Part shown: positions 3,725 to 23,228 of the stretch, one piece after another | How the letters are laid out: each line of letters starts with the position of its first letter | Numbering within the stretch: position 1 is the first letter of the stretch | From: a virus | IMG/VR virus record: IMGVR_UViG_3300028895_000246 | Coordinates: 1 to 26,432 of that record | DNA: 26,432 bases | Reading direction: 5' to 3' (one strand) | Made by a program: the position numbers and the translations under genes | Notes under the pieces: model-generated | Seen by the model: the letters and a program-made list of their open reading frames with translations, nothing else | The model's database searches: none | What the model was told of the DNA's origin: nothing

Positions 3725-3744
3725 TTTGGCTCAAATTTGCCAAA
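3725..3744. repeat. Inverted repeat over the polymerase stop codon, upstream of the ssb -35
   Basis: TTTGGC at 3725-3730 pairs with GCCAAA at 3739-3744 around an 8-base centre that contains the polymerase stop codon. No T-run follows in the direction of transcription, so it is not a standard terminator. It lies 3 bases upstream of the ssb -35 and could be a second operator or an mRNA-end hairpin. Confidence 0.4.
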
Positions 3745-6154
3745 CTTTTTGAATCACCAACGAATCTTTTTCTTTACCACGCTTACCGCTAAGCATAACG
3801 GTATTTCTTTCTGTTAAAACAGACTTATGTTCTTTCCACTGTTGTGGAAAAGCAACTACTGAATCCAACATCCCAGAACTATCACTGACAGTTAAAAATG
3901 CCATATGCTTACCTGGAGCTTTACCCTTTTTGGTTTGGATTTCTTTAATAGCATCAATCTGGCACGCTAAAATTACCACACCTTGTTGTCCATTTGTACC
4001 TTTAATAAAGTCTCTACATGTGCAATTTGCAGCCATAGTGTTGCAGGAATCAACAGAAGTACAAGTTAGTGGTATACCTAATAGGTTTTCCTCTATACTT
4101 GTTATCCACTCTGGCATATCTTCCATACTGTGAGGTGGTTCACGTAGTGCATTTAATAGGCCGGCAACCTTGTCTCGGCGCTTAGCTGTAGCACATGCCC
4201 CGTTACGACCAGCATCGGACATAACCATTAATTCTAAGATGTCCTCCAGGTTATTAGGAGATGTTAACCCGTCTGGGTCAGTATTATTATGGTCTAAGTA
4301 TAAGTTCTCTACCCACTTTTGCTCTCGCCCACTTAACTTGGAGTATATCTCATACTCATATAACATCTTAGTACGGCTAACGCCCATATAGTTGAGTGCG
4401 CCCGCCGAGATTGTAGCGCGGATAGCAGTACTGGTGGCATACTGAGAGAGGAAGATTAGAAACTGTAGCCAACTCCAGTCAGCCCGCCCCTTATTTAGTT
4501 TCTTCTCTGCTTCACCACAACGTTTAATCATCTTATCAAATACAGATTCGCCAATACCTTTAATGTCAGAGAAACCAAAGAAGATTTGTCTGTCGAATAG
4601 GCGAAAGTATTTGTTTAAGTGAATGAAGTTAGGTGGATAGATGTCAATATCCATCATGCGTGCATTCTGTGCTAGTTCATAAACCTCATCCTGTGGTCTT
4701 TGTTTTTCTTGTGAGTACCTTAGATACGAAGTAAAAAATACTCGTGGAAAATGTGCCTTGGCATATGCGGATAAGTAACCGTTAATAGCATAGCTTACTG
4801 AGTGAGACTTGTTAAATGAGTATCTCTGAGATTTCTCAATCCACCCAAAGATTTCTTCTGCTTCTTCCTTTGTGACTATGCCGGTCTTCTCACAACCTTC
4901 TAAAAACTCTACTTTAACCTTAGCCATAATTTCAGGCTTCTTTTTACCAATAGCTTTTCTTAGGATGTCAGCTTGTTGTAGATTGAAACCAGCAATATCT
5001 CGGGCGATTTGCATAGCCTGTTCTTGATAAACCATTTCCCCATAGGTGGCGCTTAATGCGTTTTCTAAGGAGGGATGGAAGTATTCAACAGGTTCTACCC
5101 CATTCTTTCGGTCAATGTAATGCTCAGTAACAGACTTTCCTTCTCGAATAGCTTCCAAACAATTATGGACTACTACGTTACCTGCAATAAAATTGTGGTT
5201 GGGTCCATCCATAACAATGTCAAATACTCGTTCTTTTTTTACAAATTCTTTACCTTGATATTCCGCCCATTCTATATCTGGATATTGTTGTAGCGCATAT
5301 TGTGCGCGTGCGTTTCTAGTTTCTTGTTCTGTAAGTTTATGTTCAGTATACATCCGATGGTGGTTTGGACACATAAAACATAGATTATCAGGGCTGTTAT
5401 CTATAGAGCGATTTCCGTTAAGGTGATTAACATCTAAAGAACCATCTTGCCAATCACAAAAAACACAATGATAGTTGTAGTGTTGAAAACATGTTTCTCT
5501 AAAATATCTGTTACCATTAGAGGTTTTAGGTTTACCCCGGTGTCTTAAAACCGCAAAACGCTCTCCTATATTTAGCTCTCTCAGTTCTTTCCAACCTGTA
5601 GGCGTCAATAACCTGTGGTCGTCAGTACATTTAAGGTCATAATACTCATTATGATTGTGGTCGTTACGACATGTTTTACGTAGTTTGATACGATACACAT
5701 TCTTTTGACCATTATCAATTACTTTTTTCATATTATTGTGGAACAACTCACCAGTGTTTTCATCTACTGATACAATAGTAGGATATTTTTCTTGTGATGT
5801 ATATAGTTCTCCAATAGTTATACGTTTGTAGTTTGGATTACCATTAGAACGCGTATATATCTTGACTATAATCTTAGTATCAATAGAGATACATCCTGGG
5901 CGCATTATTGCCACGAGAGCAGATAGGTGTTCAATATTGCGTGGCTTAAGTTTCTTAGCCAGCATTTGTCCCAGGCGGCTCTCTAATTGAAAGACACCCT
6001 TGGTGTTGCCCTCAGAAATTAAGTCCCAGGTAGCTGTACAATCCAATGGTATGTTTTCTAGATTGGGGTCAAACTTTACTTGCGGACTGCCGTCTTCTTG
6101 TGTTCCAACAACAGGAAATTTACATCCACAAGGAAACTCAAAATGTTTACTCAT
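3731..6154 (-). CDS. dnaE (C-terminal part): DNA polymerase III alpha, C-terminal half (fingers to OB fold), with intein
   Basis: An 807-residue precursor; removing the 244-residue intein leaves about 563 residues. The first 87 residues enter the fingers (IPLDCTATWDLISEGNTKGV, FQLESR, LSALVAIMRPG). After the intein come YQEQAMQIARDIAGF and ADILRKAIGKKKPE (typical alpha fingers), then the beta-binding and helix-hairpin-helix region (FGFSDIKGIGESVF). A C-terminal OB fold follows (VVILACQIDAIKEI, LTVSDSSGMLDSVVAF). The PHP domain and the palm with its three catalytic aspartates are absent; they lie in a separate gene at 9643-11514. The two products should form one alpha subunit without a covalent link. 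The ATG overlaps the dnaQ stop (ATGA) and AAAGGTG provides the ribosome site. Four cysteines near residues 700-720 (CTSVDSC, NCTCRDF) may bind metal. Confidence 0.95.
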   Translation of the reverse strand: MSKHFEFPCGCKFPVVGTQEDGSPQVKFDPNLENIPLDCTATWDLISEGNTKGVFQLESRLGQMLAKKLKPRNIEHLSALVAIMRPGCISIDTKIIVKIYTRSNGNPNYKRITIGELYTSQEKYPTIVSVDENTGELFHNNMKKVIDNGQKNVYRIKLRKTCRNDHNHNEYYDLKCTDDHRLLTPTGWKELRELNIGERFAVLRHRGKPKTSNGNRYFRETCFQHYNYHCVFCDWQDGSLDVNHLNGNRSIDNSPDNLCFMCPNHHRMYTEHKLTEQETRNARAQYALQQYPDIEWAEYQGKEFVKKERVFDIVMDGPNHNFIAGNVVVHNCLEAIREGKSVTEHYIDRKNGVEPVEYFHPSLENALSATYGEMVYQEQAMQIARDIAGFNLQQADILRKAIGKKKPEIMAKVKVEFLEGCEKTGIVTKEEAEEIFGWIEKSQRYSFNKSHSVSYAINGYLSAYAKAHFPRVFFTSYLRYSQEKQRPQDEVYELAQNARMMDIDIYPPNFIHLNKYFRLFDRQIFFGFSDIKGIGESVFDKMIKRCGEAEKKLNKGRADWSWLQFLIFLSQYATSTAIRATISAGALNYMGVSRTKMLYEYEIYSKLSGREQKWVENLYLDHNNTDPDGLTSPNNLEDILELMVMSDAGRNGACATAKRRDKVAGLLNALREPPHSMEDMPEWITSIEENLLGIPLTCTSVDSCNTMAANCTCRDFIKGTNGQQGVVILACQIDAIKEIQTKKGKAPGKHMAFLTVSDSSGMLDSVVAFPQQWKEHKSVLTERNTVMLSGKRGKEKDSLVIQKVWQI
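5162..5893 (-). mobile_element. HNH-containing intein in the polymerase III alpha C-terminal half
   Basis: An in-frame insert of 244 residues (precursor residues 88-331) between MRPG and CLEAIREGK, well-conserved alpha sequence. Splicing residues are intact: Cys at intein position 1 (CISIDTK), a block B motif with T177 and H180 (CTDDHRLLTP), C-terminal block VFDIVMDGPNHNFIAGNV, the His-Asn end, and Cys as the +1 extein residue. That is a class 1 intein expected to self-splice. Its middle carries a zinc-binding HNH nuclease domain at about residues 222-272: CVFC, DVNHLNGNRS, and CFMCPNHHRM, with the second pair of cysteines and the final histidines. Known HNH inteins home into intein-free alleles of their host gene. 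Active splicing is inferred from the intact residues. Confidence 0.95.
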
Positions 6155-6843
6155 TTAAATGCACCTTTAAATTTAACATTCTTAGAGGTTTTACGCAATA
6201 GTTTCATAAAGCGTATGATAATTTCTGCTTCATCCTGTACATCCACTAGGGCGTCGTGAGAACCACGCTCTTTCATACCGAAATACTCACGTAGTGTGTC
6301 CATACGGTAGTTTTTGGGCGCATCCTCTACATCTTCTAACCAGTAGAAGAACAGGTCTAGTAAATCAACCTTATCGCGTAACCAAAACATGGTTTTGATA
6401 CCATGTATGTTGTTGAGTCTATTAGTTATAGTGAGGTCGAAGTCGCGTATATTCATTCCACAAGCTATGGGAGCAGAGAACATCTGTCCCTTCCAATTGA
6501 ACTTGTTAATATGTTGGGAGAATCTTTCCCAAACAAACTTCTGGTCGGGTGCATTTGCCCACGACTCTATGACTTCTTCCTTAGTTTTCTTAAGTGTCTT
6601 AGCGTGCCACGCTATACACTCTTCCACCGTATCCGAATCTTTGTAGCCTGTGACTGTCTCAAGGTATTCTGGTAAATTCTCAATTCCTGGTGGTTTCACC
6701 ATCATATTAAACTCAGAACCCTTTACAATCTTGAGGGTTTTTGAGTTTACTGCCAATGCCGCTATCTGTACTGGATTACACAATTCTGGATTTTTACCGT
6801 CAGTTTCAAAGTCGAATACGATAAATGTCCTGGGTGTTGCCAT
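6151..6843 (-). CDS. dnaQ: DnaQ-like DEDDh 3'-5' exonuclease (proofreading)
   Basis: A 230-residue exonuclease of the DEDDh class. Exo I is VFDFETDG (Asp and Glu that bind metal) at about residues 10-16. Exo II lies in CGMNIRDFDL around residue 130. Exo III is GSHDALVDVQDEAE around residue 195, giving the catalytic His and last Asp. It should remove mismatched 3' ends for the polymerase III alpha next to it, as epsilon does in bacteria. The start directly follows the preceding stop (6844), with GAGGA about 10 bases upstream. The stop overlaps the polymerase C-half ATG (ATGA), so the exonuclease and this half are made together. It is one of the genes in the gap between the two polymerase halves. 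Confidence 0.94.
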   Translation of the reverse strand: MATPRTFIVFDFETDGKNPELCNPVQIAALAVNSKTLKIVKGSEFNMMVKPPGIENLPEYLETVTGYKDSDTVEECIAWHAKTLKKTKEEVIESWANAPDQKFVWERFSQHINKFNWKGQMFSAPIACGMNIRDFDLTITNRLNNIHGIKTMFWLRDKVDLLDLFFYWLEDVEDAPKNYRMDTLREYFGMKERGSHDALVDVQDEAEIIIRFMKLLRKTSKNVKFKGAFK

Positions 6844-7152
6844 TTACTCATTGTCCTCATTAGGTCCAAAACTACCACCACCTACAAAACCACCACGTAC
6901 TATTGGCACATTATGTTGTGGGTCTATGTCATCTTCGACTGGTTCATCTACAATTGCTGGCAAGCCATCTTCCTCAATAATCGCTGGCGGGCCAACAACA
7001 TCGACTTCCTGCTCTAATAGCGTTGGATTAAACGGTAAAGCATACATGTAGCCTTGTCCGCTGTCACGTTCCGCTTTGGATTCTCTAGTTCTTGTCCAGA
7101 TGTTGCCTTCAAACTCAAAGTCTTGGCCGATTTCTAAGTCTTTAATTTTCAT
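6844..7152 (-). CDS. Small acidic protein, paralogue of its upstream neighbour
   Basis: A 102-residue protein of unknown function. ATG at 7152 is preferred because AGGAAC lies 5 bases upstream; a longer start at 7164 would swallow that site. The first ~25 residues (MKIKDLEIGQDFEFEGNIWT) match the pattern L-x-IG-x-x-F-x-x-x-G-x-x-[YW] that also opens the neighbour at 7142-7339, so the two arose by duplication or share a small fold. The rest is acidic and proline-rich (VVGPPAIIEEDGLPAIVDEP), ending in a glycine-rich stretch GGFVGGGSFG. It probably binds something through its N-terminal domain, but nothing in the sequence says what. It starts 11 bases inside the previous gene and ends right before dnaQ. 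Confidence 0.75.
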   Translation of the reverse strand: MKIKDLEIGQDFEFEGNIWTRTRESKAERDSGQGYMYALPFNPTLLEQEVDVVGPPAIIEEDGLPAIVDEPVEDDIDPQHNVPIVRGGFVGGGSFGPNEDNE

Positions 7153-7339
7153 TTTGTTCCTCATAATCTACGAGTTTCATTGGAGCATAATATGTGATTT
7201 CTCCTGTGTCTTTGCGCTTCATATTAGCTATTGCGACACAACAGTTACCATTATCATACTCTGTTGGAATCTTAATGTATACTACGCCATTGAGAAGAAA
7301 TTCTGCTCCGATGGGTAGACTTTTCAGTGTTCGTTTCAT
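7142..7339 (-). CDS. Small protein with IGxxF/GxxY motif
   Basis: A 65-residue protein of unknown function (start MKRTLKSLPIGAEFLLNGVV). The start overlaps the groES stop (TAATG). The L-x-IG-x-x-F-x-x-x-G-x-x-Y pattern at residues 7-21 recurs in the next gene, suggesting a small beta-rich module. Two cysteines (NCCVA) sit in the middle. The gene overlaps the next one by 11 bases. No catalytic motif is visible. Confidence 0.75.
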   Translation of the reverse strand: MKRTLKSLPIGAEFLLNGVVYIKIPTEYDNGNCCVAIANMKRKDTGEITYYAPMKLVDYEEQNEN

Positions 7340-7596
7340 TAGTGTAAACTAGCTAGCAGTTTTTTATTATCGCAGATAAAATACTCGGTGCCCTGATGTC
7401 TAATCATACTACCCTCAAATGGATTAATGATAACTACATCACCCTGGTTTACATCTGCTACTTCCTTACCAACTGATACAACCGTACCCATGTGAGGGTC
7501 TTTGGTACTTGGTAGTGCAATACCACCCTCAGTAACCGTTTGTTCATTGGTAAGTTTTACTATTACTTTTGTGTTAAGTGCGTTGAGTTGTTTCAT
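7339..7596 (-). CDS. groES: GroES-like co-chaperonin
   Basis: An 85-residue protein with the Hsp10 fold signature: LNTKVIVKL at the start, then the mobile-loop-like TEGGIALPS, GTVVSVGKEVADVNQGDVV, INPFEG and a closing YFICDNKKLLASL. Length is slightly below the usual 90-100. Phage GroES homologues, such as T4 gp31, cap host GroEL to fold phage proteins. ATG at 7596 is chosen because GGAG lies 7 bases upstream; the frame also opens at a TTG further up, inside that ribosome site. The first 23 bases overlap the end of the upstream endonuclease gene, so the endonuclease frame runs through the groES ribosome site. It lies in the gap between the two polymerase halves. Confidence 0.9.
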   Translation of the reverse strand: MKQLNALNTKVIVKLTNEQTVTEGGIALPSTKDPHMGTVVSVGKEVADVNQGDVVIINPFEGSMIRHQGTEYFICDNKKLLASLH

Positions 7597-8461
7597 TTTG
7601 TTCTCCAAATATATCTATTCCTCGTTTTGCGAACTCGTCGCGTAAGTATTGTTCGATTTTGTCGAATGGTATGGTGTAGGGAACTTCTATTAGTTTGTCT
7701 CCCAGTGTGTCTCTGAGTAGTTGGTCGCGTTTTTGCTGTGCTATAAACCTTTCTTGTCCACCGAAGCGTGTCACTGATTCATAGTGTTGGATACCATGAT
7801 ATTCAATATAATATGGTCCTATACGAAAATCTGGTACAACATAATTACCATTCGGTAAATCTATTTTATAGTATTGATGCTTGAACGGAATTTGATATAA
7901 CATCAACAAGTTTTTAATTGTGGTTTCGCCGCTACTTTTTATACACCCACACGATTGAGTACGACCGGACAAAAGATTGTCATTTGAACATACAGTGATA
8001 GTACCACATTCACACACACATTGGGAATGATATGGTTTAATATCTGGTACGGTCACCGTTAATCTTCCAAATTTTTGACCAGACTGGGTAAAGTTTTTTC
8101 TCCTGGCTTTGTTACGTTCTATGGTTTTTTCTAATTTGAAGCAACCACATGATTTGTTATTACCACTCAACAGTTGGTGTGCTTTTACTGTTACAATGTT
8201 ACCGCATTCGCATTTACATTTACAATATAAGGTGTTTGTCTCATATGTATCTAGAACCGTCAATTTGTAGAAGGTTTTATTTAGAAAGTCTGACCGTTTG
8301 AATTTTTGTATTTTCCCTGCGCATAAGCCTAGCCTTTCTATACGGTGTGATACACTACATTTAGAGCGACCGAGATATATACCTATTTCTTTATGTGTTT
8401 TTACACCAGTGTTTACCTGTAAATATTCATCTTCCCATTCTTCCCAAGCTTTTCTAGGCAT
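7574..8461 (-). CDS. Vsr-like (EDxHD) homing endonuclease, second of a tandem pair
   Basis: A 295-residue freestanding endonuclease. ATG at 8461 is chosen because it forms a TAATG junction with the previous stop. Domains in order: an N-terminal helix-turn-helix/Myb-like segment (AWEEWEDEYLQVN, KEIGIYLGRSKCSVSHRIE); two copies of a cysteine-rich DNA-binding repeat ending SCGCF (around residue 110) and SCGCI (around residue 170), each with an internal C-x-CECG; and a C-terminal nuclease fold with VVPDFRIG, YYIEYHGIQHYE, KRDQLLRDTLGDKLIEVPY. The spaced Asp, Glu, His and Asp match the EDxHD active site of the Vsr-like family typified by I-Bth0305I. Such enzymes home into gene breaks or introns in phages. 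Active-site residues look intact. Confidence 0.88.
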   Translation of the reverse strand: MPRKAWEEWEDEYLQVNTGVKTHKEIGIYLGRSKCSVSHRIERLGLCAGKIQKFKRSDFLNKTFYKLTVLDTYETNTLYCKCKCECGNIVTVKAHQLLSGNNKSCGCFKLEKTIERNKARRKNFTQSGQKFGRLTVTVPDIKPYHSQCVCECGTITVCSNDNLLSGRTQSCGCIKSSGETTIKNLLMLYQIPFKHQYYKIDLPNGNYVVPDFRIGPYYIEYHGIQHYESVTRFGGQERFIAQQKRDQLLRDTLGDKLIEVPYTIPFDKIEQYLRDEFAKRGIDIFGEQNETTQRT

Positions 8462-9591
8462 TATGCGCCACACCCTTTCCTGATAATACCCTCAATCTTA
8501 TCAATATTCCAATATGGAATTTCCACCAGTTTGGGTCCAAGATGTTTTTGAACCGTTTTATCACGCCTCTTCTGTTCCCTCAATCTCCGCTTGGCTTCTT
8601 GTTCACTTTTAACCCCAAAAACCCCAACCGCCATCGGTTCATAGTGTTGTTTACCATGACACTCAATGTATAAATCATATTGGGGCAGGTAAAAATCAAT
8701 CATATATCGTTTGTCATCAACAACTATTTTATGTTGATGTTGATATTCTATGTTGAGTTTTTCCAGGGTGGCGATGGTAAATTTTTCTAAGTGACTTATA
8801 TTACATCGTGGACACCCTGTTTCGTCTTTGGTTCTAGTTAAAATCATAGCTTTCCATTCGTGGCCACACCTACCACATTGCCACCAAACCTTTTGGTTGC
8901 TTCTTAGTGAATATTTTTGAGGTGGTTGGTTGTTTTGCTGTCCCCACTCGGTTACTAAATCTGGTCTTTGAATGGCTAGGTTATTTCTAAGTGCCGCCTG
9001 CTCTTGTTGAGTTTTAGCCATATCCTTTTTGGCGCATTTTGGACACTTAGTTAAATTGGTTAGTCTACTAGCTATTGATGCTTTCCATTTGGTTTGACAT
9101 GTTAAACACACCCACCACACGCTTTTATTTGAACTGGCTGCATATAGGTCGGGTTTACCGTTTTTTGATATGTCCCATTCTTTATATAGTGTTTGCCAGT
9201 TAGAGTGGTCGACAAGGTTGTTGTTTTGTAGAGCTTGTTGCTTAGTTGCTATACAACCTAATTTAGCATTTGCCGGTCTTGATATATCGTACAAACACCC
9301 ACACGATTTGGTATTACCACTGGTTAATGAATGACCAACTACGTTTACTTTATTTCCACATTCACACTCGCACTCGAAAATGTAGTGACCATGTTTATCT
9401 TTATCTACTTGTTGCAAAACGGTTAGTTGTCCGTAGGTTTTTCCCAAGTGGGATTTAATAGCATCTTTTCTTAGCTCGAATTTTTTACATTTTAAGCTAA
9501 TGTTTGCTTCTGAGCAGTCAAGTTTCTTTGCGATTTCTCGTTGCGTAAGCCCAGAATCAAGCATTTCTTTGAGTTTTTCTCGTGTAATCAT
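8461..9591 (-). CDS. Vsr-like (EDxHD) homing endonuclease, first of a tandem pair
   Basis: A 376-residue endonuclease immediately after the polymerase N-half. ATG at 9591 is preferred: GGAG lies 9 bases upstream; a GTG at 9636 is the only longer option. Domains: helix-turn-helix (LTQREIAKKLDCSEANISLK); one cysteine-rich repeat (FECECECGN ... KSCGCL, about residues 50-100); two treble-clef zinc fingers of the DUF4379 type (VWWVCLTCQTKW ... CPKC and VWWQCGRCGHEW ... CPRC); and a C-terminal Vsr-like nuclease (MIDFYLPQYDLYIECHGKQH, then EQKRRDKTVQ, LVEIPYW). The Asp, Glu, His and Asp fit the EDxHD active site. It has its own promoter-like sequence. Its position at the polymerase break suggests its insertion caused the break. 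Confidence 0.9.
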   Translation of the reverse strand: MITREKLKEMLDSGLTQREIAKKLDCSEANISLKCKKFELRKDAIKSHLGKTYGQLTVLQQVDKDKHGHYIFECECECGNKVNVVGHSLTSGNTKSCGCLYDISRPANAKLGCIATKQQALQNNNLVDHSNWQTLYKEWDISKNGKPDLYAASSNKSVWWVCLTCQTKWKASIASRLTNLTKCPKCAKKDMAKTQQEQAALRNNLAIQRPDLVTEWGQQNNQPPQKYSLRSNQKVWWQCGRCGHEWKAMILTRTKDETGCPRCNISHLEKFTIATLEKLNIEYQHQHKIVVDDKRYMIDFYLPQYDLYIECHGKQHYEPMAVGVFGVKSEQEAKRRLREQKRRDKTVQKHLGPKLVEIPYWNIDKIEGIIRKGCGA

Positions 9592-9627
9592 ATGTTTTGT
9601 CTCCATTGAGTAAAGTTTGACATATAT

Positions 9628-9656
9628 ATTATACACGAAAAATTACATAATGTCTC
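9628..9656 (-). promoter_or_regulatory. Promoter for the endonuclease pair and groES cluster
   Basis: Minus strand: -35 GAGACA (9651-9656, four of six), a 17-base spacer and -10 TATAAT (9628-9633, perfect). The -35 lies inside the last codons of the polymerase N-half. Predicted start near 9621, about 30 bases before the ATG. The bases GTGTATAATATAT around the -10 are identical to those at the promoter near 26081. Confidence 0.6.
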
Positions 9657-11514
9657 CTGTTTCTAGGATTTTTTGTATACCTTCCAGCCGGTCCAACATT
9701 AAAATTCCCAAAACATCGAACTTGAGCATACCAATACTCTCAAGGTCGTTCATTTCAAGACCAGCAATCATAACCTTGTTGTTAGTATCCTGAACCATAG
9801 GACACATTTGATGCAACGGTTGGGGTGCAATCACAATCCCCGCCGCATGTTTACTTGGTGCTGATTTGACACCTTCAAGCCTTATTGCTTGAGCAAAACG
9901 GTCAGCCATTGGGCCGATTAGTTTACCATCATCAGTAAGTTGACACCACTCTGCCAACTTAGATGCTCGGTTCTCCAGCGCCCATCTAATAATTGAGCGG
10001 TCGGCCTCATCCATTTGTTTGAGTTCACCAGCAATTTTCGCCTCTTCTGGAAAGTGCTTAGTAATGCGGTTAATCTCTTCAAAGGATATGCCACCATAAG
10101 CCCTACATACATCCTTGAGCGCGCCTCTTCCTTTGATAGTTTGGAAGGTTATCATCTGAGAAACGCGGTCTTCGCCGTATTGTAGCTTGATATAGTTGAT
10201 AACTTCATCACGGTGTTTTACTGGTACGTCCATATCAATATCAGGCATGGACACTCTACCACCTGTATTTCTTCCTGCATTATAGAATCTCTCAAACAAG
10301 AGGTCGTAGGGCATTGGGTCAATACTTGTGATACCAGTTAAGTATGACACAAGGCAACCAGCAGCAGAACCACGACCAGGACCGGGCAGCCAACCTTTCT
10401 GTCTAATGAAGTTGATAATGTCAGCACAGATAAGGAAGTATCCACAAATCTTGGCTTCGGAGAATACCTTCAGTTCATGCTGAACTTCCTCACCATACTT
10501 TGTATGTTCACTCTTATCGACACGACCTTCAACCAGTCGCTTCCAACCTTCGCGACACAGTTGTCGCAAATAACCTTCTTCATCCATACCATCAGGACAT
10601 GGGAATTTAGGAGGAATTGGCTCACGAGTAATCTCAGTGTATGTTTCAACTTGAGCGGCTACATCTATTGTGGCTTTTAGTTCTTCTTCTGTATGCCCAT
10701 ACTGCAACATTTCCTCACCAGATGGAATATGGAAGTTGTTGGTTTGGAAAAACCCACGCAAACCAAAGTCAGGTGCCCTCGCTTCATTTAAGCTCACACC
10801 CATATTGCGGCAGAGAAGAATGTGTTGGTCTTCTGCCTGTTCCTGAGTAGCATAGTGGGCGTCGGGCGTAGCAATACATGGTATGCCGGTTTTCTGGGAA
10901 ATATGACGTATCATTTCGCCAATGGAAAACTGCTTAGCTTCTACATCAATCATCATTAGTTGGATTTCTAAGTAGAAGTTTTCCTTTCCAAAGATGTCGC
11001 GGAGTTGCTGGGCCATTTTAAGACCGCGCTTTTCCCAATCCGCATGTGGTTTATTTACAGTGTCGTCCCATACCGCCTTTGCCATATGAGAACCCATATG
11101 CCCACTAAAACCAATGATAGACCCATCGGTAAAAGTTGCCAGTTGATTTAGTGATAGGCGAGGCTTATGATAAAAGTTGCGCGGTTGCCACGACTCACTC
11201 GTTAGCTTAATAAGCTGTACCCATCCGCGATTGTTTTTAGCCAGTACCGGCAAGTGGGTCAGACTACGATTTTCCACGCCTTGGATAGATGCGTGACCTT
11301 CACAGGTATAAAGTTCGCACCCTATGATGGGTTTTAGTCCTGCTTTATTCATCTTGTTGAGAAACTCTACTGAACCGGAAATTCCCCCGTGGTCAGTAAT
11401 AGCACTTCCTGCTAGTTCTAAATCTCCTACGCGTTTAGCAATTTGTTCAGGCTTACTGAGACCATCAAGTAAACTGTAGTGACTATGTACGTGGAGTGGA
11501 AAATATTTAGTCAC
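9643..11514 (-). CDS. dnaE (N-terminal part): DNA polymerase III alpha, N-terminal half (PHP and palm)
   Basis: A 623-residue protein starting at GTG (11514), where GTGACTAAA overlaps the previous stop; GGAG lies about 10 bases upstream. Residues 5-270 form the PHP domain (LHVHSHYSLLDG, AITDHGG, TPDAHYAT). The palm has GPGRGSAAG at 378-386, PDIDMD at 424-429 (catalytic D425 and D427) and KFD ending at D600, the third aspartate. It stops at residue 623, just after the palm strand VLGILMLDRL, where the fingers of an intact alpha would start. The fingers and C-terminal parts are in a separate gene at 3731-6154. No intein N-fragment is seen at its end, so covalent trans-splicing is not supported. 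All known catalytic residues are here. Confidence 0.95.
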   Translation of the reverse strand: MTKYFPLHVHSHYSLLDGLSKPEQIAKRVGDLELAGSAITDHGGISGSVEFLNKMNKAGLKPIIGCELYTCEGHASIQGVENRSLTHLPVLAKNNRGWVQLIKLTSESWQPRNFYHKPRLSLNQLATFTDGSIIGFSGHMGSHMAKAVWDDTVNKPHADWEKRGLKMAQQLRDIFGKENFYLEIQLMMIDVEAKQFSIGEMIRHISQKTGIPCIATPDAHYATQEQAEDQHILLCRNMGVSLNEARAPDFGLRGFFQTNNFHIPSGEEMLQYGHTEEELKATIDVAAQVETYTEITREPIPPKFPCPDGMDEEGYLRQLCREGWKRLVEGRVDKSEHTKYGEEVQHELKVFSEAKICGYFLICADIINFIRQKGWLPGPGRGSAAGCLVSYLTGITSIDPMPYDLLFERFYNAGRNTGGRVSMPDIDMDVPVKHRDEVINYIKLQYGEDRVSQMITFQTIKGRGALKDVCRAYGGISFEEINRITKHFPEEAKIAGELKQMDEADRSIIRWALENRASKLAEWCQLTDDGKLIGPMADRFAQAIRLEGVKSAPSKHAAGIVIAPQPLHQMCPMVQDTNNKVMIAGLEMNDLESIGMLKFDVLGILMLDRLEGIQKILETGDIM

Positions 11515-17451: not shown

Positions 17452-17950
17452 AGTTTTTCCTATCTGATACCTTAGCGATTTGTAGGTTTTTTAATGTATC
17501 TGCTAAGTAACGAATACTACTAGCTAGCTCTTCTAATCTTTGAGTACGTTCCTTAGCATATGCAGCCATATCGTATATCTTCTTAGCTGCCTCGTTTTCT
17601 TTACATATTAACGCAACTTTGTATTCAGCCTTAGCTATTACCTTATCATAGTTGATTAGTGCCGGGGCTATAGTTTCGTGAAGTACCCTTTCTGCCCACG
17701 AATGTCGGGCTCGCTCACGATTCCACAATCGCTGTACATAAGTAGCAAATTGCGCCAACCTTACTCCGATAGTAGCACACTCGGTTGGACCCAATTTTTC
17801 TAGTGTATCTCGTCCCATTGTGAGGTATTCTTGTAACTCAGCCTCAATTCCAGGAGGTATATTGACTGGTACACTTGCCCGACCTTCATATTCGTCCAAC
17901 GCCCTTTCTACGACGTTCATTCGTTCAACGAGTTTATCCTGTTTAGCCAT
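17432..17950 (-). CDS. Helical protein, possible recombination mediator
   Basis: A 172-residue, largely helical protein that I cannot assign with certainty. Residues 60-160 look like coiled coil rich in Arg, Glu and Leu (VQRLWNRERARHSWAERVL, then ERTQRLEELASSIRYLADTL). Size, helical layout, a lysine-rich middle and a position beside recA recall UvsY-type mediators that load recombinase onto SSB-coated DNA; this is a weak, context-based guess. The start is uncertain: ATG 17950 has no clear ribosome site, while ATG 17920 overlaps the upstream stop (ATGA) as most genes here do. It overlaps the Vsr-like gene by up to 34 bases. Confidence 0.65.
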   Translation of the reverse strand: MAKQDKLVERMNVVERALDEYEGRASVPVNIPPGIEAELQEYLTMGRDTLEKLGPTECATIGVRLAQFATYVQRLWNRERARHSWAERVLHETIAPALINYDKVIAKAEYKVALICKENEAAKKIYDMAAYAKERTQRLEELASSIRYLADTLKNLQIAKVSDRKNYGQDNY

Positions 17951-18318
17951 TGTTCGTTCGTTTCATCAAAGGGTAGTTCTATTATGGTTATGTTGTTATT
18001 TTCACACCACTCTTTTTTCTCTGCATCACGTCTTCTGTGTCTCGCCCAATTCATTCTACTACCATGAAAGTGTTGAACGAATTTATAGTGTTGTTCACCG
18101 TGAGCCTCCACGGCTAAGTTGAGCAGAGGAGAAAAGAAGTCTAAGTATAGTGTTTGGCCGCGTCTAACTGGAATACCCACTTCTTCAATAAAGGCTACAG
18201 TGGGATATGCAGAATGTAGAAATTCTCTAACGTTAGCATGAAGCTGACTAGTTTGCTGTCGCTTGCGTGCGTGTGGTTTCCAGTTGACCTCTTTGCCATT
18301 TAGGTCAATAGTAATCAT
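17917..18318 (-). CDS. Small stand-alone Vsr-like (EDxHD) nuclease
   Basis: A 133-residue protein with only the nuclease core found at the C-terminus of the two large endonucleases: TLYLDFFSP (Asp), LAVEAHGEQHYKF (Glu and His), RHRRRDAEKKEWCE (Asp), and IIELPF as the last strand. This matches the EDxHD pattern. The DNA-binding arrays of the larger relatives are missing; only a basic N-terminus (KPHARKRQQ) remains. It may be a reduced homing enzyme or a domesticated repair or resolving nuclease. The ATG overlaps the recA stop (ATGA), so it is made with the recombinase. Fold is clear; biological role is not. Confidence 0.82.
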   Translation of the reverse strand: MITIDLNGKEVNWKPHARKRQQTSQLHANVREFLHSAYPTVAFIEEVGIPVRRGQTLYLDFFSPLLNLAVEAHGEQHYKFVQHFHGSRMNWARHRRRDAEKKEWCENNNITIIELPFDETNEQWLNRINSLNE

Positions 18319-21900: not shown

Positions 21901-21933
21901 AAAATGGGCTAGTTTTTTACGCCAGCCCATTTT
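21901..21933 (-). terminator. Intrinsic terminator after the HNH gene, probably bidirectional
   Basis: A 10-bp perfect stem (AAAATGGGCT with AGCCCATTTT, arms 21901-21910 and 21924-21933) with a 13-base loop. On the minus strand it ends in TTTT then CTCTAGTTTTT. On the plus strand it ends in a longer T-run, so it could also stop antisense transcripts. The stop codon of the HNH gene (21917-21919) lies in the loop, so a ribosome finishing the HNH gene would cover the stem. Confidence 0.8.
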
Positions 21934-22525
21934 TTTCCCTATTTTTTATCATTTGTTTGTAAATAGGAGTTAGGTATATCTCCCATTCTTGTGGAACCTT
22001 ACTCCACGGTGTTAATCCTAAGATGAATTGTCGTGGATTTGGTTCTTGCACCTCGCGTAGTAACGGCATACCAGCTTGTTCTGGTGTTTTGTCTGCCTTT
22101 TTTCTGTTACAGTCGATGCAGCAAGTAACAATGTTCTTCCAGTGCGTAGGAGTACCTTCGTATCCCTTCTTCTTCCACACTGACCTTGGAATAACATGGT
22201 CGTATGTTAACAAGTCCGTAGTACCATCACAGTAACCACAGTACTGACATGTCATTTGGTCGCGAATAAAAACATTCTTACGACTGAATGGTACCTTGCG
22301 ACGATGTTGTCTAACGTACTTAGGAACTGCCACTACCGCAGGCACAGGATGTCTCCTACCATGACCACTAGTAATGTAGTCATCTTTGTAGTAGTCAACA
22401 ACCACAACACCATCTTCTGGATTGTCCTGATTTAATATCGACAATACAATAGCACGTCTCCATGAGACTAAACCTAATGGGGTATAGTCAGCATTTAGTA
22501 CCAACACTCTCTTGTGGTTCGTCAT
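21917..22525 (-). CDS. HNH endonuclease
   Basis: A 202-residue HNH nuclease. ATG 22525 has an excellent ribosome site (GGGAGG, 5 bases upstream), although the frame is open further. The N-terminal half begins RVLVLNADYTPLGLVSWRRA, a segment shared by a widespread bacterial and phage HNH family. The nuclease core has CQYCGYCDG, LTYDHVIPRS (catalytic His), HWKNIVTCCIDCNRKKADKT (Asn and the second zinc pair). It cuts DNA; in phages such enzymes serve packaging, host DNA breakdown or homing. The start overlaps phoH by 38 bases and the stop lies in a terminator loop. Confidence 0.92.
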   Translation of the reverse strand: MTNHKRVLVLNADYTPLGLVSWRRAIVLSILNQDNPEDGVVVVDYYKDDYITSGHGRRHPVPAVVAVPKYVRQHRRKVPFSRKNVFIRDQMTCQYCGYCDGTTDLLTYDHVIPRSVWKKKGYEGTPTHWKNIVTCCIDCNRKKADKTPEQAGMPLLREVQEPNPRQFILGLTPWSKVPQEWEIYLTPIYKQMIKNREKNGLA

Positions 22526-23228
22526 TATAACCTCCCAATCTTTGAATAATACGCTCAACCAATTTGTCTCTAACACTATCAATGTGTTGCAGTGTAGAAA
22601 CAGTAATATCCTCAACATTAACCAATTTATCCATAAAGTGTTTAAAAGCACCCCTTTGTCTGTGTGGTAAGTCAGACTGTGAAGCATCGCCAGTTAATAC
22701 CATCTTAGAATTTTCACCTATACGGGTGAGTATCATAAGCAATTGACTGTGGGTGGCGTTCTGACATTCATCAGCTACGATAAAGGCGTTCTTAAAAGTT
22801 CGCCCACGCATATGGGCAAACGTAACAACTTCAATAGACTCGTTTTGTAAGCAGGCGCGCAAATCAGTATGACTTAAATACACCCGCATTTCATCAAATA
22901 TAGGTCTTAGAAATGGAGAGGCTTTTCCGCCAATACTTCCACCTCTAACGGAGAGTATCTCTCCTGGTAGGTATCCCATTTCTTCTTCTGCACAAACCAT
23001 TGGACGTGCAATAATAATCTTCTCAACTTTTTTTCTAGACAATGCTAATACAGCAGATGCTACAGCTATATGTGTTTTACCAGTACCCGCAGGTCCAGAG
23101 CAAAAGACCAATCTGTTATTATCTACTGCTTGTATATATTTCTTTTGGTTAGGAGTTTTTGCTGTTAAAAACGTTTTTTTGAGAACTAAGGTTTGTTCTG
23201 CTTTTTCTTTCTTTTTTCTTGATGTCAA
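22488..23228 (-). CDS. phoH: PhoH-like ATPase
   Basis: A 246-residue P-loop protein of the PhoH family: TPNQKKYIQAV, Walker A CSGPAGTGKTHIAV at 43-56, RPMVCAEEEMGYLPG, Walker B FIVADECQNAT, and TGDASQSDLP. PhoH proteins are common in phages; related proteins act on RNA as ATPases or helicases, but the phage role is unsettled. The start is TTG at 23228, the only usable start in frame, since a stop lies 8 codons upstream and there is no ATG before Walker A. The ribosome site is weak (GAGAG). It is the first gene after a consensus promoter. Confidence 0.93.
   Translation of the reverse strand: MTSRKKKEKAEQTLVLKKTFLTAKTPNQKKYIQAVDNNRLVFCSGPAGTGKTHIAVASAVLALSRKKVEKIIIARPMVCAEEEMGYLPGEILSVRGGSIGGKASPFLRPIFDEMRVYLSHTDLRACLQNESIEVVTFAHMRGRTFKNAFIVADECQNATHSQLLMILTRIGENSKMVLTGDASQSDLPHRQRGAFKHFMDKLVNVEDITVSTLQHIDSVRDKLVERIIQRLGGYNDEPQESVGTKC

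What the first reader, a model, noticed from the sequence alone, without database searches (positions are those of the whole stretch)
3731..11514. Fractured DNA polymerase III alpha: palm and fingers in separate genes 3.5 kb apart
The N-half ends right after the third catalytic aspartate (KFD, residue 600 of 623). The C-half starts at the fingers. Between them lie two EDxHD homing endonucleases, groES, two small paralogues and dnaQ. This matches the 'fractured gene' arrangement known from phage metagenomes with this endonuclease family, but no split-intein fragments are found at the break. The two parts must therefore form a non-covalent alpha subunit, a break point unlike the split-intein break in cyanobacterial DnaE. 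Seen: domain content and order. Known: the family and its link to fractured genes. Inferred: functional assembly.
Basis: partly seen in the sequence, partly recalled or inferred. Interest (0 to 1): 0.85.

Follow-up and report, generated by a model that had tools for sequence, protein, structure and literature searches.

The report
Phage replicase permanently split in two
A large group of uncultured phages makes its only recognisable DNA-copying enzyme as two separate proteins, divided between the catalytic palm and the nucleotide-gripping fingers, with the proofreading gene lying between them; the selfish DNA elements now at the site arrived after the gene was already split.

Summary
The split is real. 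A family C (DnaE-type) alpha subunit is encoded as alphaN (11514..9643; PHP, palm, thumb; ends 23 residues after the third catalytic Asp) and alphaC (6154..3731; fingers to OB fold), 3.5 kb apart on the minus strand. They cover E. coli alpha residues 3-578 and 572-1073.

The explanation changes. In IMG/VR, 180 of 180 related loci (115 distinct) have alphaN and alphaC in separate ORFs, 179 with dnaQ between. Most have only a 60-aa gene plus dnaQ between, and no endonuclease. Two pairs of closely related phages show that the endonuclease gene (inserted at the alphaN stop codon) and the intein come and go while the split stays. So this is an ancient, clade-wide two-chain replicase, not a recent endonuclease-broken "fractured gene". 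26 long relative contigs carry one alphaN, one alphaC and no PolA or PolB match. Both halves are under purifying selection. Cultured Rossellomorea phage phiT1 has the same break.

Non-covalent assembly is inferred, not shown. New variant of a known kind (genes-in-pieces polymerases), unusual for family C, for a break through the active site, and for clade-wide fixation.

The parts
9643..11514 (-). alphaN: N-terminal chain of DNA polymerase III alpha (PHP, palm, thumb, third catalytic Asp D600 of 623)
   Evidence: Pfam PHP and PF07733; PDB alignment to E. coli alpha 3-578, Z about 33, and M. tuberculosis 5lew, Z 37; D425, D427, D600 invariant
3731..6154 (-). alphaC: C-terminal chain of DNA polymerase III alpha (fingers to OB fold), interrupted by an intein
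   Evidence: PF17657, HHH_6; aligns to E. coli alpha 572-927 (5fkw, Z 16) and 575-1073 (5fku, Z 16)
5162..5893 (-). complete intein with HNH endonuclease inside alphaC (residues 88-331), between PG and CLEA of the fingers
   Evidence: PF14890 and TIGR01445 above cut-off; fold like NrdJ-1 intein, Z 11.4; exact presence/absence at the same codon in L014 vs L044
6151..6843 (-). dnaQ-like 3'-5' exonuclease (epsilon); its stop overlaps the alphaC start (ATGA)
   Evidence: PF00929; between alphaN and alphaC in 179 of 180 loci
7142..7339 (-). p65, member of the conserved p60 small-protein family normally between alphaN and dnaQ
   Evidence: HMM of 56 distinct p60 sequences, E 3.5e-10
6844..7164 (-). 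p106, weaker paralogue of p60
   Evidence: same HMM, E 1.2e-5 over residues 4-30
7339..7608 (-). groES-like co-chaperonin, cargo in the gap; also in relative L267
   Evidence: PF00166 E 1e-15; L267
7574..8473 (-). HEG2, Vsr-like/EDxHD-type stand-alone homing endonuclease gene
   Evidence: PHROG 559, 9084; nuclease motif D..ExHGxQH..D
8461..9636 (-). HEG1, Vsr-like/EDxHD-type stand-alone homing endonuclease gene directly behind the alphaN stop codon
   Evidence: PHROG 559, 9084 and DUF4379 zinc fingers; same-position insertion of a similar gene in L251, absent in L239

Best explanation
These phages encode their family C replicase as two chains. alphaN carries PHP, palm, thumb and all three catalytic aspartates; alphaC carries the fingers, the following helical domains and the OB fold. 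The two chains, made from one gene cluster with the epsilon gene between them and with alphaC mostly overlapping the dnaQ stop codon, fold onto each other along the surface that joins palm and fingers in one-chain DnaE, giving a non-covalent alphaN-alphaC polymerase that works with epsilon. In this phage alphaC must first excise its own intein. The break is old and fixed in the clade; the two homing endonuclease genes and the intein are later, independent, mobile arrivals. Shown: the split, its clade-wide conservation, the break position, conserved catalytic residues, purifying selection, mobility of the inserts. Inferred: the protein complex, its activity, intein splicing, translational coupling.
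For: Complementary coverage of E. coli alpha, 3-578 and 572-1073, nothing lost. 180 of 180 loci split, 115 distinct, 179 with dnaQ between. One alphaN and one alphaC per long contig, and no PolA or PolB match, in 26 contigs up to 232 kb. dN/dS mostly 0.01-0.10 in both halves across informative pairs. Both half-trees give one clade with SH-aLRT 100; alphaN-alphaC distances correlate 0.86 over 46 lineages. dnaQ stop and alphaC start overlap in 67 of 81 loci. Stop codon of alphaN varies among TGA, TAA and TAG, against one recoded stop. Endonuclease gene and intein each present in one and absent in the other member of closely related pairs.
Against: No protein evidence at all: no complex was predicted (only single chains could be modelled) and nothing was purified. 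The alphaC model is of moderate confidence (pLDDT 68, intein included). All contigs are classed linear, so a second polymerase outside them cannot be excluded.
Confidence: 0.82

Rival explanations
1. Endonuclease-made gene in pieces: an EDxHD homing endonuclease inserted in an intact alpha gene of this lineage and broke it, as mobE did to nrdA of phage Aeh1.
For: Two such genes lie in the gap here and others occur at the same place in L251 and L025. The T4-like precedents exist (PMC2988022).
Against: Most relatives have the identical break without an endonuclease; L239 lacks what L251 carries, and the insertion is at the alphaN stop codon rather than inside coding sequence. No unbroken relative was found inside the clade. 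An endonuclease at the very origin of the split, since lost, cannot be excluded.
Confidence: 0.1
2. The halves are joined after all, by a split intein, an intron, frameshifting or stop-codon readthrough.
For: Inteins do occur in this gene family, including a true split intein inside alphaN of L069/L057 and a whole intein in alphaC here.
Against: alphaN ends about 23 residues after KFD and alphaC starts with a 30-aa stretch without intein motifs; intein models hit only residues 88-331. No Rfam intron family near the break at E up to 1, although that test also missed the intron-like breaks of phage G and Jayan, so it is weak. Intact dnaQ and p60 genes with their own starts lie between.
Confidence: 0.04
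3. alphaN and alphaC are decaying remnants, and the phage uses another polymerase.
For: The contigs are not proven complete; L011 has altered residues in the PHP N-terminus.
Against: Catalytic residues invariant, strong purifying selection on both halves, no PolA or PolB match in 26 contigs, SSB next to alphaC.
Confidence: 0.04

Closest known systems
Rossellomorea phage phiT1 gp20/gp18 (PV767480)
   Same: Cultured phage; alpha in two ORFs with the break at the same palm/fingers loop, no intein, no endonuclease
   Different: Only a 49-aa unrelated ORF between, no dnaQ there; about 30% identity; shared or independent origin of the split undecided (AU p 0.185 against free tree)
Aeromonas phage 25 gp43A/gp43B split polymerase
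   Same: Replicase in two polypeptides reported to co-purify and to polymerise, with a seg endonuclease linked to the split (PMC2988022)
   Different: Family B, T4-like; here family C, clade-wide, dnaQ between
Minimal split Pol III alpha of group 2.2 jumbo phages (Iyer et al. 2021, PMC7824862)
   Same: Family C polymerase core in two proteins thought to reassemble
   Different: That version is minimal, lacks the other alpha domains, its genes are far apart and it accompanies a PolB; here PHP to OB fold is kept and no PolA or PolB match is found
Fractured genes of Dassa et al. 2009 (recalled, paper not held)
   Same: Broken DNA-synthesis gene with Vsr-like/EDxHD endonuclease between, phage metagenomes
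   Different: Those are broken by split inteins; none at this break
Cyanobacterial split DnaE
   Same: DnaE in two genes
   Different: Joined by a split intein (PMC3919608 states the intein); different break; genes far apart (recalled)

Membership tests
Family C DNA polymerase (DnaE-type alpha) | PHP, palm/NTase and fingers domains with three catalytic Asp | tested here: met
Fractured gene with split intein (Dassa type) | split intein fragments at the break | tested here: not met
   intein models hit only residues 88-331 of alphaC; the same models detect a split intein in L069
Fractured gene with split intein (Dassa type) | free-standing endonuclease gene between the halves | tested here: met
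   HEG1, HEG2 in the window; but absent in most relatives
Gene broken by homing endonuclease insertion (mobE/nrdA type) | relatives without the endonuclease have an unbroken gene | tested here: not met
   180 of 180 loci split, nearly all without endonuclease; L239/L251
Genes-in-pieces enzyme | two polypeptides assemble into an active enzyme without covalent joining | not testable with these tools
   only single chains could be modelled
Intein (in alphaC) | Cys1, block B TxxH, C-terminal HN, Cys+1, splicing domain model above cut-off | tested here: met
   sequence CISIDTK..CTDDHRLL..VVHN|C; PF14890, TIGR01445; NrdJ-1 fold, Z 11.4
EDxHD homing endonuclease (I-Bth0305I) | homology to I-Bth0305I and conserved active-site residues | tested here: inconclusive
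   shared D..ExHGxQH..D pattern, PHROG homing-endonuclease hits; no PDB sequence match to I-Bth0305I by profile
Minimal split Pol III of jumbo phages | no PHP or other alpha domains, accompanied by PolB | tested here: not met
   PHP present; no PolB in 26 relatives

The most novel reading that the evidence does not exclude
One ancient fracture gave rise to a family C replicase that has stayed obligately two-chain across a large phage clade (possibly shared with phiT1), with its active site divided between chains, and the proteins encoded between the halves, epsilon and the conserved 60-aa p60, have become structural parts that hold alphaN and alphaC together.
Probability: 0.15. Interest if true: 0.8.

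Novelty: new variant of a known kind. Interest (0 to 1): 0.62.

Why it matters
Family C replicases are otherwise studied as one long chain. A whole phage clade that keeps palm and fingers on different polypeptides shows that the palm/fingers linker is dispensable for a replicase that must copy genomes of 100-200 kb, gives a natural split point for biochemistry or engineered split polymerases, and separates two things often equated: a gene being in pieces and homing endonucleases having broken it. The natural pairs here show the reverse order: the elements settle at a locus that is already split.

Tried and rejected
Stop-codon recoding at the break: rejected, alphaN stops are TGA 47, TAA 42, TAG 1 and frames between halves vary. 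Intron: Rfam at the break gave nothing; a weak negative, because the intron-like breaks of Jayan and phage G were also missed. Split-intein remnant in the alphaC N-terminus: no motif, no model hit. Bacterial origin or host copy: the nearest bacterial proteins are intact DnaE at 36% identity. Isolated phages: no clade member in INPHARED, all matches under 60% identity and the best full-length ones about 33%. Search for relatives of phiT1 in IMG/VR found none. One-origin test of clade plus phiT1: not rejected (p 0.185), so neither shown nor excluded. Phage G first looked like the same break; on reading, its break lies just before KFD and it has another before PDID with a GIY-YIG endonuclease, so it was set apart. 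Sequence search for I-Bth0305I as a homologue of the endonucleases gave nothing. The careful alphaN tree did not finish; a quick tree with SH-aLRT support was used.

Full report
OBSERVATION. On the minus strand, alphaN (11514..9643, 623 aa) holds PHP and the alpha NTPase/palm domain, and alphaC (6154..3731, 807 aa) the fingers. All three catalytic aspartates are in alphaN (D425, D427, D600), invariant over 23 aligned sequences. The model of alphaN (pLDDT 79) aligns to E. coli alpha 3-578 and that of alphaC (pLDDT 68) to 572-1073, so the two chains together are one complete alpha up to the OB fold, without the tau-binding tail. In intact phage and bacterial proteins the break falls in the variable loop after the KFD-helix and before the conserved GxTxGxFQLES stretch.

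AN INTEIN WAS MISSED. alphaC residues 88-331 (CISIDTK...VVHN, followed by CLEA) are a full intein with an HNH nuclease. It sits at the same codon boundary in relatives. L014 and L044 are 95-97% identical over about 16 kb, and L014 has a 241-codon intein exactly between GGA and TGT while L044 has none. So the intein is mobile, and the polymerase part of alphaC is 563 residues.

THE SPLIT IS A CLADE FEATURE. IMG/VR scans with alphaN, alphaC and their alignments (the last reports 556 relatives of alphaC) gave 180 loci with both halves. In all 180 the halves lie in different ORFs, and in 179 dnaQ lies between; 115 are distinct by the alphaN 3' end, 12 of these with the intein. The usual order is alphaN, a 56-66 aa gene (p60), dnaQ, alphaC, most often with short overlaps; the dnaQ stop and alphaC start overlap in 67 of 81 loci. 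The contents of the alphaN-dnaQ gap vary: L011 has a uracil-DNA glycosylase; L012 a glutamate dehydrogenase-like gene, a uracil-DNA glycosylase and an IMPDH/GMP-reductase-like gene; L267 groES; L025 an HNH endonuclease; L251 an EDxHD-type endonuclease.

ENDONUCLEASES CAME LATER. L239 and L251 are 94-99% identical in the aligned stretches. L251 has about 0.9 kb with a 324-aa endonuclease gene starting at the alphaN stop codon; L239 has six bases there. Conversely L239 has the alphaC intein and L251 does not. The break between alphaN and alphaC is the same in both. The direction (gain rather than loss) rests on the absence of such genes in most of the clade.

SOLE POLYMERASE, UNDER SELECTION. 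26 long relative contigs (64-233 kb) have one alpha NTPase gene and one fingers gene each; in a few the gene is further cut by an intein. None matches PolA, PolB or the bacterial beta clamp. The contigs are classed linear, so absence is not final. dN/dS is mostly 0.01-0.10 for alphaN, dnaQ and alphaC alike (the L032/L039 pair, at dS about 0.01, is not informative). The distances of alphaN and alphaC correlate 0.86 over 46 lineages.

TREES. The split clade is one clade in the alphaN tree, the alphaC tree and the whole-alpha tree, SH-aLRT 100 each. In the whole-alpha quick tree it falls with phiT1 and phage G (94, unstarred, long branches); holding the clade and phiT1 together is not rejected (AU p 0.185). 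One or several origins of the break are both open. The ancestor of the clade was most simply an intact alpha, since bacterial and most phage outgroups are intact.

MECHANISM. The most likely reading is a non-covalent alphaN-alphaC enzyme working with epsilon. The fingers close on the nucleotide over the palm, so the active site is made of two chains. The precedent for activity of such a pair is the family B gp43A/gp43B of Aeromonas phage 25 (PMC2988022). Most alphaC proteins of the clade start with about 30 extra residues with a CGC motif, absent in intact alpha and in some members; it could cap the new terminus (inference).

AGAINST JOINING. No intein fragments at the break; as a positive control, the same models find the N-terminal half of a split intein in L069, where alphaN is broken a second time at GPGRG/SAAG with a 264-aa putative endonuclease ORF between. 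That is the true split-intein fractured arrangement, in the same clade but at another place. No intron model matches at the break, though this test is not sensitive.

PRIOR ART. Iyer et al. 2021 (PMC7824862) describe a minimal Pol III alpha core in two distant genes beside a PolB. I found no paper in the held library describing the present arrangement; the library lacks most subscription journals.

VERDICT. Observation confirmed; interpretation partly supported. A new variant of the genes-in-pieces kind, with assembly untested.

Noticed in passing
L069/L057, L069:5065-8154: alphaN is itself broken by a split intein at GPGRG/SAAG with a 264-aa putative endonuclease ORF between: a true split-intein fractured gene, so alpha is in three pieces there.
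   Followed up: partly
L185 (Bacillus phage G, 239245-250008): alpha in three ORFs (gp329, gp331, gp339): gp329 carries an intein at GRG/SAAG; breaks just before PDID (with GIY-YIG endonuclease gp330) and just before KFD look intron-like, but Rfam finds no intron.
   Followed up: partly
L184 (Bacillus phage Jayan, about 6150-6490): DNA polymerase annotated as two genes, broken inside the PDIDxD active-site motif; intron-like, not recognised by Rfam.
   Followed up: partly
L199, L201, L202, L217, L222; L208, L212, L217: Other phage alpha genes are split at the PHP/palm boundary (about residue 290 of the L173 protein) or at about residue 750, so alpha is broken at several places in phages.
   Followed up: no
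window 17917..18318: A 133-aa nuclease related to the HEG1/HEG2 catalytic domains, next to a recA-like gene, is kept a few kb upstream of alphaN in most relatives; probably a resident enzyme rather than a homing gene.
   Followed up: partly
26 long relative contigs: No match to the bacterial beta clamp (PF02767), so the processivity factor of this replicase is unknown.
   Followed up: no
window 7142..7339 and relatives: Conserved 60-aa p60 protein (weak match to PHROG 2183, unknown function) between alphaN and dnaQ in 84 loci, absent in L011, L012, L078, L082.
   Followed up: partly
window 21917..22687: HNH-endonuclease-like ORF (CxxC..RDHxxPRS pattern by eye) upstream of a PhoH-like ORF.
   Followed up: no
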